Shown here piece by piece: positions 2,009 through 41,068 of a DNA stretch of 44,953 nt. Numbering within the stretch: the stretch's first letter is position 1; the number at the start of each line of letters is the position of its first letter. The stretch lies in NCBI GenBank assembly GCA_945862415.1, contig CAMAYP010000006.1:1-44953 (forward strand), in the 5' to 3' direction. This stretch comes from Chryseobacterium gleum (lineage in GTDB: Bacteria > Bacteroidota > Bacteroidia > Flavobacteriales_D > Sanyastnellaceae). The translations under genes were made by a program, and so were the position numbers. A model generated the notes under the pieces. The model did not search any database, was not told the origin of the DNA, and worked only from the letters and a program-made list of their open reading frames with translations.

Positions 2009-3418
2009 TTACTTCTTAACGAAAACCTGATAGCCATGCGGAGGAAGCTCTTGATGGCCTTTGGTGTAAAGCGTAAGCGACTGAGCATTGAAGATGCTGG
2101 GGTATTCGCCTTCCGGCATGTTTTCAATGAAGTCAACGCTTTGTGGTTTGTCGCTGAAGTTGAGCATCACAACTACCTGGTTGTTGTCTTTCGTGCGAGA
2201 GAAGCAATACAGCACATCGTCGCTGCTGGTTTTGATTTTCTTGAAAGCGCCACCAAACTCACCATTCCACAATGCAGGGTTTTCCTGGTGTACCTTGAAC
2301 AAGCGCGTGTAAAAATCCTGGAACTTATAATTGTTCCATTGAACCGTGTCTTTTTCAAAGAACGAGAGTCGGTGAGGGGTGCCGTCGGCCTTTTGCTCAC
2401 CACCTTCCTGGCCGGAGTATAATAGTGGCATACCGCCAATGGTCATAGCCAGCACATCCATAGTTTGTCGAAGAGAACCGAGGCGCTCATTGCCGGTTCC
2501 ATTCCACGAGTTTTCATCGTGGTTGGTGGTGAAGTACATGCGGTACGAGCTGCGTGGGAAGGCCGTGTCTTGCTTCGCCATATAAGCGTCGATATCGCTC
2601 AGCTTTTTTTCTCCTTTAGCAACCTCGTTGGTGATGTGCATAAACTCCCACGCATAGCTCATGTCGAATGCCTTCAGGTGATGCTCCTTGCGCTCTGCCT
2701 CAGCCAGCATGAAAACAGGCTTGATGCTGTCGAGCGCTGCACGCGCCTGATCCCAGAAAGGAGTGGGCACCTTCTCGGCCACATCGCAACGGTATCCGTC
2801 GATGTCGCACTCTTTCACCCAAAACTTCAAGGCGTCGGTCATGCCGGTCCAAAGTGCTTTGTTCTCGTAGTTGAGCTGCGCCACGTCCCACCAGTCGGTG
2901 CCGAGTGGAGGTTGAATCTTACCGGCGGTGTCGAGCAAGTAATACTCTAAGTGGTCCGTGGTCCACTGGTTATCGAATGCGCTGTGGTTGGCCACCCAGT
3001 CGATGATGACCTTCATGCCGTTGTCGTGCGCGGTCTTCACCAAGTTCATAAAGTCTGCAAGTGAACCATAGCTCGGGTTCACGGCCTTATAATCCTTCAC
3101 ACTGTAATGGCTGCCCAATCCACCTTTCCGATTCACTTCACCGATGGGGTGAATAGGCATGAGCCAAAGAATATCGACACCCATCGACCTCAGGCGAGGA
3201 ATGTCTTTGCTGAAAGCGTTGAACGTGCCCTCAGGAGTATGCTGACGAATATTTACCTCATAAATGGTCGCGTTTTTCGACCAGTCGGGGTGCTGCAGCA
3301 CACGGGTGTCGGAGTGACCAATAACTTTAGCTTCAGCATCAGATTGTGGAGCATTGCCGCAGGAAAGGATGAATCCGGCAAAAGACAAAGCCGCCAAGGA
3401 GCGCAGAATGGTTTTCAT
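2009..3418 (-). CDS. GH13 alpha-amylase family lipoprotein
   Basis: The 469-residue protein starts with a lipoprotein signal peptide (GFILSC, Cys20). All four conserved GH13 regions are visible: DWVANHS (region I), GYRCDVAE with the nucleophile Asp (region II), MLAEAE with the acid/base Glu (region III) and TTNHDENSW (region IV). A C-terminal beta domain follows. It should hydrolyse alpha-glucans at the cell envelope. It is the first gene of a probable three-gene operon with prmC and a second GH13 gene. A -10-like TAGATTTG lies at 3439-3446 on the minus strand, about 20 bp before the ATG, but no clear TTG partner is at the right distance. Substrate preference is unknown. Confidence 0.92.
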   Translation of the reverse strand: MKTILRSLAALSFAGFILSCGNAPQSDAEAKVIGHSDTRVLQHPDWSKNATIYEVNIRQHTPEGTFNAFSKDIPRLRSMGVDILWLMPIHPIGEVNRKGGLGSHYSVKDYKAVNPSYGSLADFMNLVKTAHDNGMKVIIDWVANHSAFDNQWTTDHLEYYLLDTAGKIQPPLGTDWWDVAQLNYENKALWTGMTDALKFWVKECDIDGYRCDVAEKVPTPFWDQARAALDSIKPVFMLAEAERKEHHLKAFDMSYAWEFMHITNEVAKGEKKLSDIDAYMAKQDTAFPRSSYRMYFTTNHDENSWNGTGNERLGSLRQTMDVLAMTIGGMPLLYSGQEGGEQKADGTPHRLSFFEKDTVQWNNYKFQDFYTRLFKVHQENPALWNGEFGGAFKKIKTSSDDVLYCFSRTKDNNQVVVMLNFSDKPQSVDFIENMPEGEYPSIFNAQSLTLYTKGHQELPPHGYQVFVKK

Positions 3419-3530: not shown

Positions 3531-3545
3531 TACGTTTGGAGGCCG

Positions 3546-3616
3546 TTCTCATTGTGTTTCTGATTCTGATTCTCATTCTGGAATTTTTAGAATGAGAATC
3601 AAAAACACAATGAGAA
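3546..3616. repeat. Palindromic hexamer-arm repeat, copy A
   Basis: An imperfect inverted repeat. The outer 14-bp stem pairs 3546-3559 with 3603-3616 exactly, and the inner 12-bp stem pairs 3568-3579 (GATTCTCATTCT) with 3589-3600. The core is CTGGAATTTTTAG. The left arm carries one extra hexamer plus two bases, which would bulge. The conserved GGCGC tail seen in other copies is degraded here. It lies downstream of the four-helix-bundle gene and upstream of the amylase gene. Confidence 0.85.
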
Positions 3617-3654
3617 TTTGTATAGCGAATGGCTTTCCTTGAGCGTTGGGGTTG

Positions 3655-4026
3655 TTAATTCGATAAATTCCGAATCATAGCATACAGCATTTTTGAGATC
3701 TCGCTTGCTAGGGATAATTGAGAGTTGTGCGTTTGAATTTGGATGCTGTTTTCATGCCTTATTAAGTCTAGTATTGCAACACACTCGAATACCGAAGCTC
3801 TTGAGATGGTAAAAAAGTTCTTGCGGTCGGCAGGTGATTTTCGACCAGAGCCTTCAGCAATATTCAATACAATGCTGTATGATGCTCTGGACAGTTGATC
3901 TCTTACATGTCTCTCAAGTGATTTGTCTTTTGTTATAGCCCTGCAGCCAACATAGAAAATCTGAGCCTTTTTATATACTTCCAGTTTTTGGAAATCGAAT
4001 AGAATAGTTGTGGTTTCTACAGCCAT
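3655..4026 (-). CDS. Four helix bundle protein (S23/IVS-encoded family)
   Basis: The 123-residue protein matches the small family first described from intervening sequences of 23S rRNA genes. Its signature NIAEGSGR is present, preceded by the typical start FDFQKLEVYKKA and the helix RDQLSRASYSI. Relatives include the Avd accessory proteins of diversity-generating retroelements, but no reverse transcriptase or template/variable repeat is seen here. The biochemical role of the family is not established; Avd-type members bind nucleic acid. The gene is AT-richer than its neighbours and is flanked on both sides by the palindromic hexamer-arm repeats (copy A at its 3' side, copies B-D at its 5' side), which suggests it may have arrived or spread with them. 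Confidence 0.85.
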   Translation of the reverse strand: MAVETTTILFDFQKLEVYKKAQIFYVGCRAITKDKSLERHVRDQLSRASYSIVLNIAEGSGRKSPADRKNFFTISRASVFECVAILDLIRHENSIQIQTHNSQLSLASEISKMLYAMIRNLSN

Positions 4027-4135
4027 AACGTTTAGTTTTATGAGGCTAAACTAGCTCACATGCTTCAGGGCCTTGGCTCATAAAGTACTATAAATTATAG
4101 GAATATTATTCGGCAGTTATTCTGTTTCTTTCTCT

Positions 4136-4219
4136 CATTCAGTTTCTGCTTGTGTTTCTCTTTCTGGAAATTTTTAGAATCAGAAACAGAAACACAATGA
4201 GAATGAGTGGATGGCGCCC
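4136..4219. repeat. Palindromic hexamer-arm repeat, copy B (tandem array unit 1)
   Basis: The pyrimidine-rich left arm, core TTCTGGAAATTTTTAGAA and purine-rich right arm are made of 6-nt units (AGAATC, AGAAAC, ACAATG, AGAATG). A tail TGGATGGCGCCC ends the unit. Copies B, C and D follow each other at a period of about 80 bp and fill the 372-bp gap between the four-helix-bundle and photolyase genes. Confidence 0.88.
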
Positions 4220-4298
4220 TCATTCTGTTTCTGCTTGTGTTTCTCTTTCTGGAAATTTTTAGAATCAGAAACACAATGAGAATGAGGGGTCGGCGCTC
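4220..4298. repeat. Palindromic hexamer-arm repeat, copy C (tandem array unit 2)
   Basis: Same organisation as copy B, with one AGAAAC unit fewer on the right arm. The tail reads GGGTCGGCGCTC. The left arm is nearly identical to copy B, so the units probably arose by duplication followed by loss or gain of whole hexamers. Confidence 0.88.
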
Positions 4299-4390
4299 TT
4301 ATTCTGTTTCTGCTTGTGTTTCTCTTTCTCTTTCTGGAAATTTTTAGAATCAGAAACAGAAACACAATGAGAATGGGAGGTCGGCGCCCC
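4299..4390. repeat. Palindromic hexamer-arm repeat, copy D (tandem array unit 3)
   Basis: Same organisation as copies B and C, with one additional CTTTCT unit in the left arm. The tail AGGTCGGCGCCC ends less than 10 bp from the stop codon of the photolyase gene, which is read from the other strand. Confidence 0.88.
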
Positions 4391-4398
4391 CTTCAATC

Positions 4399-5907
4399 CT
4401 ACAAAAGACTCAACTGCTCACCCCCCTTTTTCTTCTTCACCACCGATTTTTTGCGAGCATGCGTCGCCACGATGCGCTTACCTTCTGCCTTCACGTCGTC
4501 TTTTTTGCGATGGCCCCAGATGGCTTCGCGAGCGTGGCGAGCGGCCGATTCAAGGGCAATGATCGGGGCAGGGTAGTCGGTGCTGATGTGCACGCCGCAG
4601 TGAGCTTGCTCTTCGGCCGTCATAAGATGGGGTTCGTGAATGTGTTCGGCAGGCACAGCGCGAAGTTCGGGCACCCACGCCTTGATGAATGCGCCTTCCG
4701 CATCGTGGTCGTGGCTTTGCTTCACAGGGTTGTACATACGCACGGTGTTGACGCCCGTGGTGCCTGCCTGCATCTGGAATTGCGGATAGTGTATGCCGGG
4801 CTCGTAGTCGAGGAAAAGTCGGGCCAGATGATAGGTTCCTGAACGCCAATCCTGATACAAGTGATGGCAGAAGAAACTCACCAACATCGCCCGCATGCGG
4901 AAGTTGATCCAACCGGTGGTGTGCAGGCATCGCATGCATGCATCGACGAGCGGAAAGCCCGTCAGTCCGTTTTCCCAGGCTTCGATAAGCGCGGAGTTGT
5001 GCGCTTTTACCAGTGACTCATAGCCGGCATTTACGCAACGCGTTTCGTAATCACATTCTACCTCGAACTTCTGGATGAAGTGATCTCGCCACTTGACACG
5101 CGTAAGAAAGCCATCGACCCAACGCTTACCCTCCGCAGCGCGGGGATGCTCCAAGGTATTTTGGTAAACCTGACGCACGCTCACGTTGCCCCATGCCAGA
5201 TAGGGCGAGAGGCGGCCACAGCTGATTCTGCTCTCTGCAGGTTTGGAGATGTGTTTATTATAGTTCACCCCGCGTTCTTCCATGAAGCTACTCAGGTAGC
5301 GAAGGGCTATGTCTTCACCTGCGGGTTGGAATTCGCGTGGATAGTCTGCCCAGGTTCTTTTTAATTCGTCGGGTAGGGCAAAGGGGTAATCCGGCATTAC
5401 AAGTTCCTGCCGACTGAACGTATTACGGATGATGGGGGCGTGCATGAATCCAAACCATTGCTTGTCCCACCCCTCGCGGTTTTTGATGCCGCGTTGAATG
5501 CCGTCGCGCTTACATTCATTCCAGCGAATGGCTCGCTCATCGCACCACCGTTGGACGGCCTTGTCGCGCAACCAGGTAAGGCGAACGCCGCTTTCGCGGT
5601 AGCTGAAGATGTTGAGGATGTCGAAATGTTCGGCTATGCCGGAGAACACATCCACCGCTTCACCATAGGATACGTGCACGCAACGGTTAGACGCTTTCAA
5701 TTTCTCGTTGACCTGCAACAGGCTCTGATATTGAAACTGAAGGTGACGCGTGCTGGTATCGGGGTGAGCAATCAACGACGGCTCGAAGCAATAGACAATG
5801 AAATAGTGCACACCCGCCTTCTCGGCCAGCATGAGCGGCTCATGATCCTGCGTGCGCAGGTCGCGCTTCATCCAGACGAGGTTGATAGGGTGCTTTGCTC
5901 GAGACAT
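4399..5907 (-). CDS. Cryptochrome/DNA photolyase family protein (FAD-binding)
   Basis: About 502 residues. The N-terminal alpha/beta photolyase domain begins INLVWMKRDLRTQDH. The C-terminal helical FAD domain carries TGFPLVDACMRCLHTTGW and NFRMRAMLVSFF, followed by the conserved YPQFQMQAGTTGVN and YNPVKQS. Photolyases use FAD and blue light to reverse UV pyrimidine dimers; a cryptochrome photoreceptor role is also possible and the motifs do not decide. The tail is lysine-rich and ends GGEQLSLL. I chose the ATG at 5907 because the longer frame begins only with a TTG at 5943 and adds non-homologous residues. It is flanked by palindromic repeats on both sides. Confidence 0.92.
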   Translation of the reverse strand: MSRAKHPINLVWMKRDLRTQDHEPLMLAEKAGVHYFIVYCFEPSLIAHPDTSTRHLQFQYQSLLQVNEKLKASNRCVHVSYGEAVDVFSGIAEHFDILNIFSYRESGVRLTWLRDKAVQRWCDERAIRWNECKRDGIQRGIKNREGWDKQWFGFMHAPIIRNTFSRQELVMPDYPFALPDELKRTWADYPREFQPAGEDIALRYLSSFMEERGVNYNKHISKPAESRISCGRLSPYLAWGNVSVRQVYQNTLEHPRAAEGKRWVDGFLTRVKWRDHFIQKFEVECDYETRCVNAGYESLVKAHNSALIEAWENGLTGFPLVDACMRCLHTTGWINFRMRAMLVSFFCHHLYQDWRSGTYHLARLFLDYEPGIHYPQFQMQAGTTGVNTVRMYNPVKQSHDHDAEGAFIKAWVPELRAVPAEHIHEPHLMTAEEQAHCGVHISTDYPAPIIALESAARHAREAIWGHRKKDDVKAEGKRIVATHARKKSVVKKKKGGEQLSLL

Positions 5908-5952
5908 GGTTTGGCGAAGAAAGTGAGGATGGGGGTTAAACAAGGTGGGGCG

Positions 5953-5968: not shown

Positions 5969-5982
5969 TGCGATTGGCGGGT

Positions 5983-6072
5983 ATTCTCATTGTGTTTCTG
6001 CTTCTGTTTCTCTTTCTGGAAATTTTTAGAATGAGAAACAGTAACAAAATGAGAATGAGTGGGGGCGCGCTC
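5983..6072. repeat. Palindromic hexamer-arm repeat, copy E
   Basis: A full copy: left arm starting ATTCTCATTGTGTTTC, core TTCTGGAAATTTTTAGAA, right arm of units AGAATG, AGAAAC, AGTAAC, AAAATG and AGAATG, then a tail AGTGGGGGCGCGCTC. It lies just upstream of the photolyase start and downstream of the hydroxyacid dehydrogenase. Confidence 0.85.
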
Positions 6073-6117
6073 TACAATCCTGAAATCCTTTCTCTGCGCC
6101 CCTTTGCGGTTAAAAAA

Positions 6118-6161
6118 AGAAACAGTAACAGAAACACAATGAGAATGAGTGGTCGGCGCCC
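6118..6161. repeat. Palindromic hexamer-arm repeat, half copy F
   Basis: Only the purine-rich right arm (AGAAAC, AGTAAC, AGAAAC, ACAATG and AGAATG units) and the tail AGTGGTCGGCGCCC are present. In place of the left arm stands CTCTGCGCCCCTTTGCGG (6092-6109), a sequence resembling the CTTTGCG motif in the hairpin at 16157-16209. The tail ends 8 bp from the stop of the hydroxyacid dehydrogenase gene. CAACTTTCAACTTTCAG follows it and overlaps the end of that gene. Confidence 0.75.
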
Positions 6162-6169
6162 TGCAACTT

Positions 6170-10237: not shown

Positions 10238-11866
10238 ATGCCAAAAGGAGTATTCCAAGTACCTGTGCCCGTCAACGAACCCGTGCGCAGCTATGCCGTC
10301 GGAACGGCCGATCGCGAGAATTTGTTGAATCAATACCGTGCTATGTACAACCAGGCTCCCATTGATGTGCCTATGTACATCGGTTCGGAATTGGTGCGCA
10401 CATCCGACAAGCGCACCATGTCGCCGCCACACGACCATAAGAAAGTACTTGGCCACTTCAATTGGGGCACAAAAGCGCACGTGTCGCAAGCCATTGATGC
10501 TGCTCTGGCAGCAAAAGGCCGTTGGTCGGCCATGGCATGGGAGCAACGCGCTGCCATTTTCTTGCGCGCTGCCGATTTACTCGCAGGTCCATACCGCATG
10601 CGCATGAATTCAGCAACCATGCTGGCTCAAAGCAAGAATGCGTTTCAGGCGGAAATTGATGCAGCCTGTGAGCTCATCGATTTCTTGCGTTTCAATGTAG
10701 CCTTTATGCAACAGATTTACCGCGACCAGCCGGGCAATCAACCCGGTGTTTGGAATCGCTTGGAGTATCGCCCGCTCGAGGGATTTGTATTTGCCATTAC
10801 ACCATTCAACTTCACGGCTATTGCAGCCAACCTGCCCGCCAGTGCCGCGCTGATGGGCAACACCGTTGTTTGGAAACCATCGGACACACAAGTCTACAGT
10901 GCGCATGTCATTATGGAACTTTTCCGTGAGGCAGGTTTGCCTGACGGCGTTATCAATATGATTACTGTAGAAGGCAAGGACGCCGGTGATGTGATTTTCA
11001 GTCACCCCGATTTCGCAGGACTTCATTTCACGGGATCCACGGGAGTGTTCAAACACTTGTGGAAGGAAATCGGGACCAACATCGAGAAGTATAAGACCTA
11101 CCCGCGCATAGTAGGGGAGACGGGAGGGAAAGACTTTGTCATAGCACATCCTTCGGCCAATCCGAACGAAGTTGCTACAGCACTCACTCGCGGCGCATTC
11201 GAGTTTCAAGGACAAAAGTGCAGCGCCGCAAGCCGTGGTTACATTGCCAAGTCGCTGTGGCCTGCAGTGAAAGAGCGTTTGATTCTAGATGGTGCAACCA
11301 TGAAAATGGGAACACCCGAAGATTTCGGCAACTTCGTCAATGCCGTAATCGACCAGCGCGCATTCGACAAAATCAAAGGATACATTGAGTATATCAAATC
11401 GCAGCCCGACGTTGAGATTATCACCGGCGGCAATTGCGACGACAGCGTGGGCTACTTCGTTGAGCCTACCATTGCTGTTACTACTAACCCGAAGTTCCGC
11501 ACCATGTGTGAGGAAATCTTCGGTCCGGTGCTTACCCTATATGTGTATGACGACGCGCAGTGGGCTGAGACCTTGCATTTGATCAACGATACGAGTGAGT
11601 ATGCGCTCACGGGAGCCATCCTATCGCACGACCGCTATGCCATAGAGCAGGCAACGCGTGTATTGGAAGGCGCATGCGGTAACCTCTACATCAACGACAA
11701 ACCAACCGGAGCCGTAGTAGGCCAGCAGCCCTTCGGCGGCGCACGCGCGAGCGGTACCAACGACAAGGCCGGCAGCTACCTCAACTTGTTGCGCTGGGTT
11801 TCACCGCGCACGATTAAGGAAACGTTTGTATCGCCGGTGGATTATCGGTATCCGTTCCTGGGTTAG
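10238..11866 (+). CDS. pruA: L-glutamate gamma-semialdehyde (1-pyrroline-5-carboxylate) dehydrogenase
   Basis: A 542-residue aldehyde dehydrogenase. The catalytic Glu motif GETGGKDFVI lies near residue 293 and the nucleophile Cys in GQKCSAASR near 326; FAITPFNFTAIAANLPASAA and FTGSTGVFK mark the NAD-binding region. Length and the C-terminal QQPFGGARASGTNDKAG agree with the stand-alone P5CDH type, which oxidises glutamate semialdehyde to glutamate in proline catabolism. No proline dehydrogenase (PutA/PRODH) gene is in the window, so the first step must be elsewhere. It has its own promoter-like sequence and no recognisable terminator; iterated GACTGG sequence follows the stop. Confidence 0.93.
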   Translation: MPKGVFQVPVPVNEPVRSYAVGTADRENLLNQYRAMYNQAPIDVPMYIGSELVRTSDKRTMSPPHDHKKVLGHFNWGTKAHVSQAIDAALAAKGRWSAMAWEQRAAIFLRAADLLAGPYRMRMNSATMLAQSKNAFQAEIDAACELIDFLRFNVAFMQQIYRDQPGNQPGVWNRLEYRPLEGFVFAITPFNFTAIAANLPASAALMGNTVVWKPSDTQVYSAHVIMELFREAGLPDGVINMITVEGKDAGDVIFSHPDFAGLHFTGSTGVFKHLWKEIGTNIEKYKTYPRIVGETGGKDFVIAHPSANPNEVATALTRGAFEFQGQKCSAASRGYIAKSLWPAVKERLILDGATMKMGTPEDFGNFVNAVIDQRAFDKIKGYIEYIKSQPDVEIITGGNCDDSVGYFVEPTIAVTTNPKFRTMCEEIFGPVLTLYVYDDAQWAETLHLINDTSEYALTGAILSHDRYAIEQATRVLEGACGNLYINDKPTGAVVGQQPFGGARASGTNDKAGSYLNLLRWVSPRTIKETFVSPVDYRYPFLG

Positions 11867-11899
11867 GGACTGGGGACTGGTTACTAGATACTGATGAGT
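11866..11899. repeat. GACTGG / TACTAGATACT iterated motif
   Basis: AGGGACTGGGGACTGG is followed by TTACTAGATACTGATGAG, directly after the dehydrogenase stop codon. It is the clearest copy of the GACTGG motif also seen at 3504 and 5953. Confidence 0.55.
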
Positions 11900-11935
11900 G
11901 GATGCTGAGCACTGGAGAAAGTTCGAATATCGCGA

Positions 11936-12058
11936 GGGATTAGCGGAGCGTAACCTTGGCGTAAAAGAATCGTGGTTTAAAACCAATTCAAACGTCTTGC
12001 ATATTGGCAAATGCCAACTAAAACTTCGGCACGGGTTACGCCTCGCTAAACCCGCGCC
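11936..12058. repeat. Inverted repeat pair and hairpins upstream of an orphan small gene
   Basis: A 20-bp sequence at 11936-11955 (GGGATTAGCGGAGCGTAACC) recurs inverted, with small changes, at 12033-12053. The right copy is itself part of a hairpin whose stem pairs GGCACGGGTT (12028-12037) with AACCCGCGCC (12049-12058). Between them is a short palindrome TTGGCAAATGCCAA (12004-12017). The block occupies most of the 211-bp gap before the small membrane protein gene. It resembles a cassette boundary, but classical attC consensus boxes are not present. Confidence 0.6.
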
Positions 12059-12077
12059 ATTGGGTAGATGTAATTAA

Positions 12078-12350
12078 ATGAACGAAGACGATTTTATGCT
12101 GCTTTTTTGCTACCTGATTTTCGGATTGACACTTGGTTTTTTGACAGTCAGGAGTAAAAACCGACTAAAAACCCTGACTATAAATTTGATAGTGTCGGGA
12201 CTGTATAGCGCACTTTTCCTTTACAACTTGACATTCAACAGCTCAGGAGGTTCGGGACTTGTATGGCTCATGTCTTTGCTGTTTTTCATTGGAGTGCATT
12301 GGATCATAAATTTGATAGGGGTAGTCTTAACTTTTTTCAAAAGACAATGA
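12078..12350 (+). CDS. Small membrane protein of unknown function
   Basis: A 90-residue protein I do not recognise. Three hydrophobic helices are predicted by eye: about 7-25, 34-52 and 62-86, separated by a basic loop (RSKNRLKT) and a Gly/Ser loop. By the positive-inside rule the first loop is probably cytoplasmic. Its codons are AT-richer than those of the flanking genes. It stands alone between the dehydrogenase and the SGNH hydrolase, preceded by an inverted-repeat block and followed by a CCCACGATT hairpin and a palindromic hexamer repeat; this setting suggests a recently gained gene. No function can be assigned. Confidence 0.65.
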   Translation: MNEDDFMLLFCYLIFGLTLGFLTVRSKNRLKTLTINLIVSGLYSALFLYNLTFNSSGGSGLVWLMSLLFFIGVHWIINLIGVVLTFFKRQ

Positions 12351-12360
12351 AAACAATAAG

Positions 12361-12410
12361 ACCTGTCCCTCTCACCGTCATCTGTAATCCGTCATCTTTT
12401 ATCTCGCATC
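12361..12410. repeat. Degenerate CCGTCATC / TAATCC iterated sequence
   Basis: Repeated ACCGTCATC, AATCCGTCATC and ATCTCGCATCC units follow the small membrane protein gene. A similar string (ATCATCCGTCATCACC) occurs at 21302-21317, before uvrA's 3' end. Confidence 0.4.
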
Positions 12411-12430
12411 CCCACGATTGAAATCGTGGG
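12411..12430. repeat. REP-like perfect hairpin
   Basis: CCCACGATT (12411-12419) and AATCGTGGG (12422-12430) form a perfect 9-bp stem with a 2-nt loop, followed by CTTGGCAACCCAACCC. Such short GC-capped palindromes are typical of REP-type intergenic elements. No T-run follows on either strand, so it is not a classical terminator. Confidence 0.65.
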
Positions 12431-12493
12431 CTTGGCAACCCAACCCTCTGCAAAATGAACCTGCTTGACTGAACTCTGCACGCAGTCTCCACT

Positions 12494-12579
12494 AAGCGCC
12501 ATCCATTCATTCTCATTTTGTTTGTGTTTCTCATACTAAAAAATTCCAGAAAGAGAATCAGAATCAGAAAGACAATGAG
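12494..12579. repeat. Palindromic hexamer-arm repeat, copy G (inverted orientation)
   Basis: Read on the minus strand it has the same order as the other copies: core TTCTGGAATTTTTTAGTA, units AGTATG, AGAAAC, ACAAAC, AAAATG and AGAATG, and a tail ATGGATGGCGCTT. It lies between two convergent genes, 18 bp from the SGNH hydrolase stop. Confidence 0.82.
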
Positions 12580-12597
12580 TACAGCCACCAATCGTCC

Positions 12598-14028
12598 TCA
12601 GTCCCCATTTCCCGCACCCCACGCATCATATTCATCCAATATCGCCTTGGCAAGAAGCTCCGCCATTTTGCGCGCGCCGGCAGGAGTGAAGTGCGTGTAG
12701 TCGGGTCCGGCGTATTGCGGATTGTGATTGACCCAGGCGATCATTGAATTGCGTCCGCCCATGACAGAGAACATATCCCAAAAGGCACAGCCTTCGGCAA
12801 ATGCGGCTTCCTTCATGCCTTGGTTCAACTCTTCCAAGTAGGGCCACGTTTGCATTACACCGTTCACACTGGTGCTCATGTCGGATGGACCGATTACGAT
12901 AACGGCGGCACCCGGATGCATCGACTTGAAGCGTTGGATGTGCGTGCGGAAGTATGCTCCGTGCTTGCGAGCCGACTCGCGACCGCTGAGGTAGGGCACA
13001 CTGTTGCCTCCAAACTGAAGTATGAAAAGTCCTGCTTGCAACTCTTTGAACGCTGGTTGCATCGAGCCGGAATTGACACGAAAAAATGCACTTCCGTCGT
13101 TGCCGCGCAATGCGATGTTGCTCATGCCGACACCGCTCATACTATTGAGACTGATACCATAGATATCGGGGCTCGAAACAGCTTCAAACACAAAGCGAAT
13201 GCGATTCGTTTGCGGTACGGTAAAGCTTCGTGATGCAATCGAGGAGGTAACAGGCAGTGTCTCGGTGGCTACCGGCACATCGTCGGCCAAGACTGTAAGC
13301 TGACACGGATGATTGCTGTTGCCAAAAAACAAAACCGCTTCCTGAAACTGCTTGCAACGGGAGGTAGCCATGGAAGACGGACGGAATTCGATGTAGGCTT
13401 CGGTTACTCCCGAACTATCGGCTGCAGCCTTCACGGGAGTGAAGCGCGTGAAAGCGCACATGGGACCGTAGTTCTGATGCCCGCATTTGCCGTTGTCGTA
13501 GCCATACGAAGTGTAGCGTTTCCAGTTACTGCTTTGAGTGAGTATAACAGAACTGGGCGGTGCAACCGGCAACGGACAAATAAGCCCGCAGCCCGAACCA
13601 CCAAAGCGCGATTGCAGTTTGTCGCGCACGATGTTGGTCATGCGATCGCCTTCAATCTGTGAGTCGCCGTAATGAAACACATGCACTTTTCTTCCATTGG
13701 AGGCGTTGCTCAACGCTTCAAAAAAAGGGAAGAAGGAAGCGGAGTTCGCTTCGGCAAATTGAAGCGATGCGATTGTTTCGGTTCGTTGAATGGAACGTGA
13801 GGTATCGGCAGTTGCTGTTGCCGTCGAATCGAACATGGCCAAATGCGCATCGATGTCTGTCACCGCAGGAATAGCCGCTGAATCGGGTTGCTCGTTCCAA
13901 CTCTTAAATCGAAACGTGTAGCCCGCTACTTGCAAGCCATCCGTTGGAAATACCATTGCAATAGCCCCGCATACCACGGCCACTGCAATGAGAAAAAGCA
14001 AAGTCTGTTGCGGACGAATAACCTTCAT
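12598..14028 (-). CDS. SGNH/GDSL-type hydrolase, membrane-anchored
   Basis: About 476 residues with an N-terminal hydrophobic anchor (about 10-28), so the bulk should be periplasmic. Block I is HYGDSQIEGDR (nucleophile Ser123), a Gly/Asn block is LQFGGNSVPYL, and the catalytic Asp/His pair is in GPDYTHFTPAG near residue 446. The insert between blocks (about 200-330) looks like a beta-sandwich. Relatives act as esterases on O-acetylated glycans or peptidoglycan. I use the ATG at 14028; a TTG two codons earlier is less likely. It follows the OmpA-family gene by 36 bp on the same strand, suggesting co-transcription and an envelope role. Confidence 0.85.
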   Translation of the reverse strand: MKVIRPQQTLLFLIAVAVVCGAIAMVFPTDGLQVAGYTFRFKSWNEQPDSAAIPAVTDIDAHLAMFDSTATATADTSRSIQRTETIASLQFAEANSASFFPFFEALSNASNGRKVHVFHYGDSQIEGDRMTNIVRDKLQSRFGGSGCGLICPLPVAPPSSVILTQSSNWKRYTSYGYDNGKCGHQNYGPMCAFTRFTPVKAAADSSGVTEAYIEFRPSSMATSRCKQFQEAVLFFGNSNHPCQLTVLADDVPVATETLPVTSSIASRSFTVPQTNRIRFVFEAVSSPDIYGISLNSMSGVGMSNIALRGNDGSAFFRVNSGSMQPAFKELQAGLFILQFGGNSVPYLSGRESARKHGAYFRTHIQRFKSMHPGAAVIVIGPSDMSTSVNGVMQTWPYLEELNQGMKEAAFAEGCAFWDMFSVMGGRNSMIAWVNHNPQYAGPDYTHFTPAGARKMAELLAKAILDEYDAWGAGNGD

Positions 14029-40826: not shown

Positions 40827-40901
40827 TGGTACTGATCACTGGGTGACGATACCTAAATAGCGTTGACCGACACCTCGGCTCCAATCGGTGACTGCGCAAC
40901 G

Positions 40902-40985
40902 TCTCATTCTGATTCTAACTGTGTTTCTCTCTCTGGAATTTAGAAAGAGAGGCAGCAACAGAAACACAAACACAAACAGAATGAG
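40902..40985. repeat. Palindromic hexamer-arm repeat, copy H (diverged)
   Basis: CTCATTCTGATTC starts the left arm; the core is CTCTGGAATTTAGAAAGAG; the right arm is built of AGAAAG, AGAGGC, AGCAAC, AGAAAC, ACAAAC, ACAAAC and AGAATG units, one of the longest right arms seen. The GGCGC tail is replaced by AGGTTTGCCGAGG. It sits between rpoD and rpsA. Confidence 0.78.
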
Positions 40986-41068
40986 GTTTGCCGAGGGATG
41001 ACCTTTTAACGTCATTGTCCCCAGTACTTTTTTTTTACTTTTTCCGCTGAAAATCAACCCATCCACAC

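What the first reader, a model, noticed from the sequence alone, without database searches (positions are those of the whole stretch)
3546..4390. Four-helix-bundle gene framed by palindromic repeats
The S23/IVS-type gene (3655-4026) has copy A on one side and three tandem copies (B-D) on the other, and is AT-richer than its surroundings. In rRNA intervening sequences, members of this family are encoded inside a stem formed by flanking inverted repeats. Here a protein of that family again sits between palindromic DNA, but outside any rRNA gene. The protein may bind or help spread these repeats.
Basis: partly seen in the sequence, partly recalled or inferred. Interest (0 to 1): 0.7.

Follow-up and report, generated by a model that had tools for sequence, protein, structure and literature searches.

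The report
Hairpin-framed mobile four-helix-bundle gene
A small gene known until now mainly as a parasite inside ribosomal RNA genes turns out, in this bacterium, its relatives and other phyla, to sit in the loop of a giant hairpin built of short repeated DNA words, in units that sit at unrelated sites in different species and look mobile, so the rRNA cases appear to be one special case of a widespread, undescribed mobile element.

Summary
In detail: a PF05635/TIGR02436 (S23, 23S-rRNA-IVS-type) gene at 3655-4026(-) lies between one hairpin (3543-3617) and three tandem ones (4127-4389).
This hairpin family alone is weak evidence. Only 1 of 4 such genes in the genome is near it, and it also frames the photolyase.
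Solitary four-helix-bundle (4HB) genes sit between INVERTED arms of short tandem words, usually 7-mers and here 6-mers. The word differs from locus to locus but matches between the two arms. Own arm pairs beat swapped pairs in four sets: the genus, Bacteroidota, a second phylum, and plasmids (mainly cyanobacterial); 0/10,000 permutations each. The genus count is 17/23 against 20/1014 other genes.
Arms, leader and gene form one unit: near-identical units occupy four unrelated sites in four species, and orthologous sites without the gene exist, among them a relative of this very site with the hairpins but no gene.
A classical 23S rRNA IVS (Azospirillum) has the same heptamer arms, and published Coxiella data show heptamers upstream of its IVS ORF.
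Best reading: an IVS-like mobile element outside rRNA. How it moves and what the protein binds are untested.

The parts
3655..4026 (-). four-helix-bundle (S23 / 23S-rRNA-IVS-protein family) gene, 123 aa
   Evidence: PF05635 78.7 bits, TIGR02436 77.3 bits; AlphaFold2 pLDDT 96, Foldseek to 2GSC/2RLD then Avd; 74% identical relative in G004 (L150) and 52% in G003 (L161)
3543..3617 (.). copy A: hexamer-word hairpin 3' of the gene (right arm side)
4127..4389 (.). copies B-D: three tandem 85-bp hexamer-word hairpins 5' of the gene, directly after the photolyase stop codon
4088..4111 (-). leader motif GAATAATATTCCTATAATTTATAG shared with other 4HB genes of the genus whose proteins are only about 25% identical; possible promoter or operator
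3619..4118 (-). segment (4HB gene plus leader) absent from the orthologous photolyase-amylase interval of G004, which has three tandem hairpins and the same outer junction but no gene
3542..4395 (.). whole framed unit between the photolyase and amylase genes
5975..6162 (.). further hexamer-word hairpins (one complete, one partial) 3' of the dehydrogenase gene, without a 4HB gene
12490..12590 (.). further hexamer hairpin, inside the slot 11866-12606
40895..40990 (.). further hexamer hairpin
11866..12606 (.). slot framed by GGGGACTGAGGAC (12588-12606) and CCAGTCCCCAGTCCC (11866-11880); in G001 the orthologous slot with the same words holds a 4HB gene, here it holds other repeats

Best explanation
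The framed gene is an IVS-like mobile element living outside rRNA. SHOWN by sequence: the unit consists of a 5' arm of purine/G-rich short tandem words, a leader, a ~120-codon 4HB gene, and a complementary 3' arm; in folded transcripts the arms pair and the gene lies in the loop. The arms of one locus match each other although words differ between loci. Near-identical units with the same word lie at unrelated sites in different species, and orthologous sites without the gene exist. INFERRED: the unit moves as a piece (by transposition or transfer) and prefers the space just behind stop codons or rRNA hairpin tips. It is tolerated because the transcript's long stem can be cut out by RNase III, as shown in the literature for rRNA IVSs. 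The ring-forming, Avd-like protein binds the element's stem or leader and helps copy or protect it. Arm identity is kept by slippage plus arm-to-arm copying on the hairpin. In the window the arms are full hexamer hairpins that pre-date or outlive the gene at this site.
For: Inverted-arm scores (250-bp flanks): genus 23 loci, own mean 29.5 against 15.0 permuted; Bacteroidota 30 loci, 17.6 against 12.1; another phylum 29 non-rRNA loci, 24.8 against 13.9; plasmid loci 15, 24.8 against 12.9; 0/10,000 permutations reach the observed mean in any set. Score >=25 in 17/23 genus 4HB loci against 20/1014 other genes, Fisher p 3e-22. Pooled 57 arm pairs with score >=20: period 7 (self-match 0.45 at lag 7, 0.43 at lag 14, 0.29 shuffled), 5' arm G-rich in 53/57, 3' arm starts a median 11 nt after the stop. 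MFE folds put 30-81 pairs between the arms. Unit mobility: L144, L149, L151, L152 carry near-identical proteins and the same (GAGTGGC)n arms at four unrelated sites, with homology ending at the arms. The window's sublineage keeps its hexamer hairpins at three different sites (window, L150, L161). Sites without the gene. rRNA link: L206 lies in 23S rRNA with heptamer arms; Coxiella IVS has (GACAGAT)2-3 upstream of its ORF (PMC4990558).
Against: No transposition was observed and no target-site duplication or mobilising enzyme was identified. 'Unit moved' rests on comparing draft genomes (MAGs), where horizontal transfer or loss could give similar patterns. About 40% of the pooled loci score below 20, most of them in Bacteroidota outside the genus. 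At the HU-aldolase site a species without the gene has a hairpin of another word, and at the sdhA-sdhB site 4HB genes have different words in different species, so arms can be replaced or can belong to the site. Nothing here tests protein binding. In Coxiella the IVS protein seems not to be made (PMC4990558).
Confidence: 0.6

Rival explanations
1. Passenger / target preference: word hairpins and word tracts are independent, fast-changing intergenic repeats, and a 4HB gene inserts by an unrelated route into them. The arms belong to the site, not to the element.
For: The same words and hairpins exist without the gene: G004 at the photolyase-amylase site, G002 at HU-aldolase, the window slot 11866-12606, one-armed tracts in G001/G004/G006. 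Words differ between species at the sdhA-sdhB site.
Against: The same word accompanies the same 4HB lineage at four unrelated sites, and the hexamer word accompanies its lineage at three sites. Sites without the gene usually lack matched two-sided arms.
Confidence: 0.22
2. Y1 (IS200/IS605, RAYT-like) transposases mobilise these hairpin-ended units in trans, as RAYTs are thought to do for REP/BIME; the 4HB protein is cargo or a chaperone.
For: Across 118 Bacteroidota genomes 4HB and Y1_Tnp gene counts correlate (Spearman 0.61) while RVT_1 counts do not (0.08). The window genome has two Y1_Tnp genes.
Against: Seven of 54 genomes with four or more 4HB genes have no Y1_Tnp hit, and four of these have no RVT_1 hit either. 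The own Y1 gene at L027 is flanked by GC-rich AAGCCCGAAGGGCTT hairpins, not by the word arms. The correlation is not corrected for genome size or kinship.
Confidence: 0.13
3. No mobility: the hairpins are bidirectional terminators, insulators or mRNA stabilisers placed behind genes, and the 4HB gene is an ordinary chromosomal gene that happens to need strong insulation.
For: Hairpins in the window genome lie just 3' of stop codons.
Against: Inverted two-sided arms are rare around other genes (20/1014 score >=25). Units with the same sequence lie at unrelated sites, and the gene is absent from orthologous sites. Arms stay matched while the word changes, which insulation would not require.
Confidence: 0.04
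4. Local coincidence: a common hairpin family happens to lie on both sides of a 4HB gene in this window.
For: The hairpin family has about 15 other loci in the genome, it also frames the photolyase, and only 1 of 4 own 4HB genes is near it.
Against: The closest relative of this gene (L150, 74% identical) is framed by the same family at another site in another species, and the general association is found in four independent sets.
Confidence: 0.01

Closest known systems
23S rRNA intervening sequences (IVS) with an S23-protein ORF (Leptospira, Coxiella, Alphaproteobacteria)
   Same: Same protein family; ORF in the loop of terminal inverted repeats. Heptamer words in the arms in Azospirillum (L206) and upstream of the ORF in Coxiella (PMC4990558).
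   Different: Those lie inside 23S rRNA genes and are excised from rRNA by RNase III; the units here lie between protein genes, are many per genome, and their words differ from locus to locus.
PF05635 / TIGR02436 solitary 'four helix bundle' genes; solved members 2GSC (XCC0516) and 2RLD (BT_0352)
   Same: Sequence and predicted fold match.
   Different: No function or genetic context had been assigned; the inverted-arm context is new as far as the papers held here show.
Avd, accessory protein of diversity-generating retroelements
   Same: Same four-helix-bundle fold (Foldseek to 4DWL and 8UB*, TM about 0.7).
   Different: No reverse transcriptase or template/variable repeat was found with the window gene; the own genome has no RVT_1 hit.
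Heptameric short tandem repeats (STRR; Calothrix, Nostoc, Xanthomonas GGGAATC)
   Same: 7-nt tandem words in intergenic DNA. In Xanthomonas 70-75 convergent (inverted) pairs were reported (PMC4692102).
   Different: That work did not link the repeats to 4HB genes; the window's own copies have a 6-nt period.
REP/BIME with RAYT (Y1) transposases
   Same: Intergenic palindromes, 3' of genes, present in many copies.
   Different: Arms here are tandem words and the framed gene is a 4HB gene, not a Y1 transposase; the own Y1 gene has other hairpins.

Membership tests
PF05635 / TIGR02436 four-helix-bundle (S23 / IVP) family | profile score over the curated cut-off | tested here: met
   78.7 vs 33.8 bits and 77.3 vs 24 bits
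PF05635 / TIGR02436 four-helix-bundle (S23 / IVP) family | four-helix-bundle fold like 2GSC/2RLD | tested here: met
   AlphaFold2 pLDDT 96 and Foldseek TM 0.75-0.85
rRNA intervening sequence (IVS) | located inside an rRNA gene | tested here: not met
   No Rfam match in the window at gathering threshold; the neighbours are a photolyase and an amylase
rRNA intervening sequence (IVS) | S23-family ORF in the loop of flanking inverted repeats | tested here: met
   Window inverted score 35; relatives fold with 30-81 arm-arm pairs
rRNA intervening sequence (IVS) | excision of the transcript by RNase III | not testable with these tools
   no RNA data
DGR accessory protein (Avd) | adjacent reverse transcriptase with template and variable repeats | tested here: not met
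   No RVT_1 in the own genome at E<=1e-5 (assembly 87% complete); neighbours are a photolyase and an amylase
REP/BIME with RAYT | framed gene is a Y1 tyrosine transposase | tested here: not met
   The framed gene is PF05635
Insertion sequence / MITE | target-site duplication and terminal inverted repeats shared with a transposase element | tested here: inconclusive
   Unit ends coincide with word arms, but repeats at the ends hide any duplication and no parent transposase element was found
Heptameric STRR | tandem 7-nt units | tested here: inconclusive
   Met for most relatives (lag 7 = 0.45), not met for the window copies, which have period 6

The most novel reading that the evidence does not exclude
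Solitary 4HB genes, rRNA IVSs and part of the unexplained heptameric repeats of bacterial intergenic DNA are one widespread class of hairpin-framed mobile elements. The 4HB protein acts on the element's own hairpin, the arms are copied from one another so that they stay complementary while their word drifts, and rRNA IVSs are simply the copies that landed in 23S rRNA.
Probability: 0.35. Interest if true: 0.9.

Novelty: new variant of a known kind. Interest (0 to 1): 0.76.

Why it matters
The origin and function of rRNA intervening sequences have been open since about 1990 (PMC4990558), the S23/4HB family has solved structures but no function, and heptameric repeats are over-represented in bacterial genomes with little explanation (PMC4692102). 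Finding that 4HB genes in several phyla sit in the loop of locus-specific word hairpins, and that at least one classical rRNA IVS is built the same way, ties these three loose ends together. It gives direct tests: transcript excision, stem binding, marked-element mobility, arm co-evolution.

Tried and rejected
Association of 4HB genes with this one hairpin family: weak (1 of 4 in the own genome; 2 of 30 genus loci by BLAST), so I widened the test to any inverted word arms.
Trans-acting reverse transcriptase: gene counts do not correlate and the own genome has no RVT_1 hit.
Leader motif as a diagnostic element end: 7 of 9 exact matches in the genus lie before 4HB genes, but one lies before a sugar-isomerase-like gene and the reversed-pattern control gives 6 matches. 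It is more likely a promoter or operator and was not used as an argument.
Rfam on the window and on 30 loci of the other phylum: no known RNA family.
Further rRNA-inserted 4HB genes in the other phylum: none among the 30 loci returned.
No paper in the held library linked 4HB genes to inverted tandem words.

Full report
1. What is there. The window is a contig of a 2.66-Mb metagenome assembly (G000:C6). The closest named records are Flavobacteriales/Bacteroidetes MAGs. At 3655-4026(-) lies a 123-aa four-helix-bundle protein gene of the S23 / '23S rRNA intervening sequence protein' family (fold confirmed). It lies between an alpha-amylase-type gene (2009-3418) and a photolyase (4399-5943). Copy A (3543-3617) and three tandem 85-bp copies (4127-4389) are strong hairpins whose arms have a 6-nt period. 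The coordinates and the AT-richness in the finding are right (38% GC against 47%).

2. The narrow association is weak. The hairpin family has about 15 further loci in the genome, typically just 3' of a stop codon, and it also flanks the photolyase. Of the four 4HB genes of the genome only this one is beside it.

3. The general association is strong. Reading all ~30 4HB loci of the eight available genomes of the genus showed that nearly every gene lies between arms made of short tandem words in inverted orientation, with a different word at each locus: (CGAGGTG)n, (GAGTGGC)n, (GGGACTG)n, (GGTGATA)n, (GGATTAC)n, (GTGAAAG)n, (GTTGAAA)n. I scored the best local alignment of the 250-bp upstream flank with the reverse complement of the downstream flank. 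In the genus the mean is 29.5 for own pairs, 14.3 for swapped pairs and 12.7 for neighbouring ORFs. In 1.2 Mb of Bacteroidota DNA only 20 of 1014 non-4HB genes reach 25, against 17 of 23 genus 4HB loci (Fisher 3e-22). The only two 4HB genes in that unbiased set rank second and third, behind the photolyase next door.

4. It reaches beyond the genus. Thirty Bacteroidota loci, 29 loci from the phylum of genome G175 (its record is titled Gammaproteobacteria; none in rRNA) and 15 plasmid loci, mainly cyanobacterial, all show the effect. In each set no permutation of partners in 10,000 reaches the observed mean. Among 57 pairs scoring at least 20 the period is 7 (0.45 at lag 7, 0.43 at lag 14, 0.29 shuffled). 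The 5' arm, read in the direction of the gene, is G-rich in 53 of 57, and the 3' arm starts a median 11 nt after the stop codon. The effect is weakest in Bacteroidota outside the genus (8 of 30 reach 20). Folding puts 30-81 base pairs between the two arms with the gene in the loop.

5. Link to rRNA IVSs. In L206 (Azospirillum lipoferum plasmid) the 4HB gene lies inside a 23S rRNA gene (LSU_rRNA_bacteria, 2151 bits). Its arms are GGACGGATGACAGAGGACGG / CCGTCCTCTGTCTTCTGTCATCC (inverted score 27, shuffles at most 13). The Coxiella IVS paper reports two or three tandem GACAGAT heptamers just upstream of its S23 ORF, varying among strains, and says that IVS origin and function remain unclear (PMC4990558). 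So the classical IVS and the intergenic units share their architecture. This rests on one locus tested here and one from the literature.

6. The unit looks mobile. L144, L149, L151 and L152 (four species) have nearly identical proteins and the same word at four unrelated sites; the alignment shows homology from the left arm through leader and gene to the right arm and nothing outside. Orthologous sites lacking the gene exist. Photolyase-amylase: G004 has three tandem hairpins and the same outer junction but no gene, while G001, G005 and G007 have other short repeats. ABC-transporter site: short word tracts only in three species. HU-aldolase site: G002 has a hairpin of another word. L154 site: the window at 11866-12606 has the same GGGACTG/CAGTCCC frame with other contents. 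The window's own sublineage (window, L150, L161) keeps hexamer hairpins at three different sites in three species. Both arms of L144 carry the same extra block in complementary form. Words thus tend to travel with the gene lineage, yet they can also be replaced at a site (sdhA-sdhB: GGATTACA words in two species, GTGACTA in a third).

7. Mechanism. Shown: architecture, arm matching, polarity, unit boundaries, sites without the gene. Inferred: movement as a unit; a transcript stem that RNase III can cut, making the insertion harmless (as shown for rRNA IVSs in the literature); a ring-shaped Avd-like protein acting on the element's own nucleic acid; arm identity kept by slippage and arm-to-arm copying. 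The mobilising agent is open. Y1 transposase gene number correlates with 4HB gene number (rho 0.61) and reverse transcriptase number does not (0.08), but four 4HB-rich genomes have neither, and the correlation is not corrected for genome size or kinship.

8. Known or new. IVSs with S23 genes, Avd proteins and heptameric intergenic repeats are each known. The papers I could search do not join them; most subscription journals are not in that library. I therefore call it a new variant of a known kind: IVS-like elements outside rRNA, framed by locus-specific word arms.

9. Limits. The genus data are draft MAGs; the other phylum is unnamed by the tool; about 40% of pooled loci fall below the score cut; the windows scored are 250 bp; no RNA, binding or transposition data exist here.

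Noticed in passing
window 11866-12606: Slot framed by GGGACTG / CAGTCCC words that holds a 4HB gene in G001 but a hexamer hairpin and other palindromic repeats here.
   Followed up: partly
window 4399-5943 vs L059: The photolyase region is 97.8% identical in DNA to G001 while both flanks are about 91.6% identical, suggesting recent recombination of this gene between species.
   Followed up: no
L027 (G000:C40), 180-1330: A Y1 (IS200-like/RAYT-like) transposase gene surrounded by GC-rich REP-like hairpins of the AAGCCCGAAGGGCTT type, unlike the word arms of the 4HB units.
   Followed up: partly
L196 and L204 (cyanobacterial plasmids), L201: 4HB genes inserted inside CRISPR-cas operons: between cas6 and cas4 in Anabaena sp. 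90 and Pseudanabaena galeata, between cas10 and the Cmr3 gene in Picosynechococcus.
   Followed up: no
L144 and L152, both sides of the 4HB gene: Block GGGCTGAGCGGAGTCGAAGCC inserted in the left word arm of both loci; in L144 the complementary block is also in the right arm, a sign of arm-to-arm copying.
   Followed up: partly
L163 (G005:C5): 4HB gene at the sdhA-sdhB site broken by a stop/frameshift, with arms of a different word than the orthologous site in G001 and G006.
   Followed up: partly
L224 (G004:C55:3131-3151): The leader motif of the 4HB genes occurs before a sugar-isomerase-like gene (recognised by eye), so it may be a promoter or operator rather than an element end.
   Followed up: partly
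L161 (G003:C32): 4HB gene next to a tRNA gene, with a partial second 4HB copy about 200 bp downstream.
   Followed up: no
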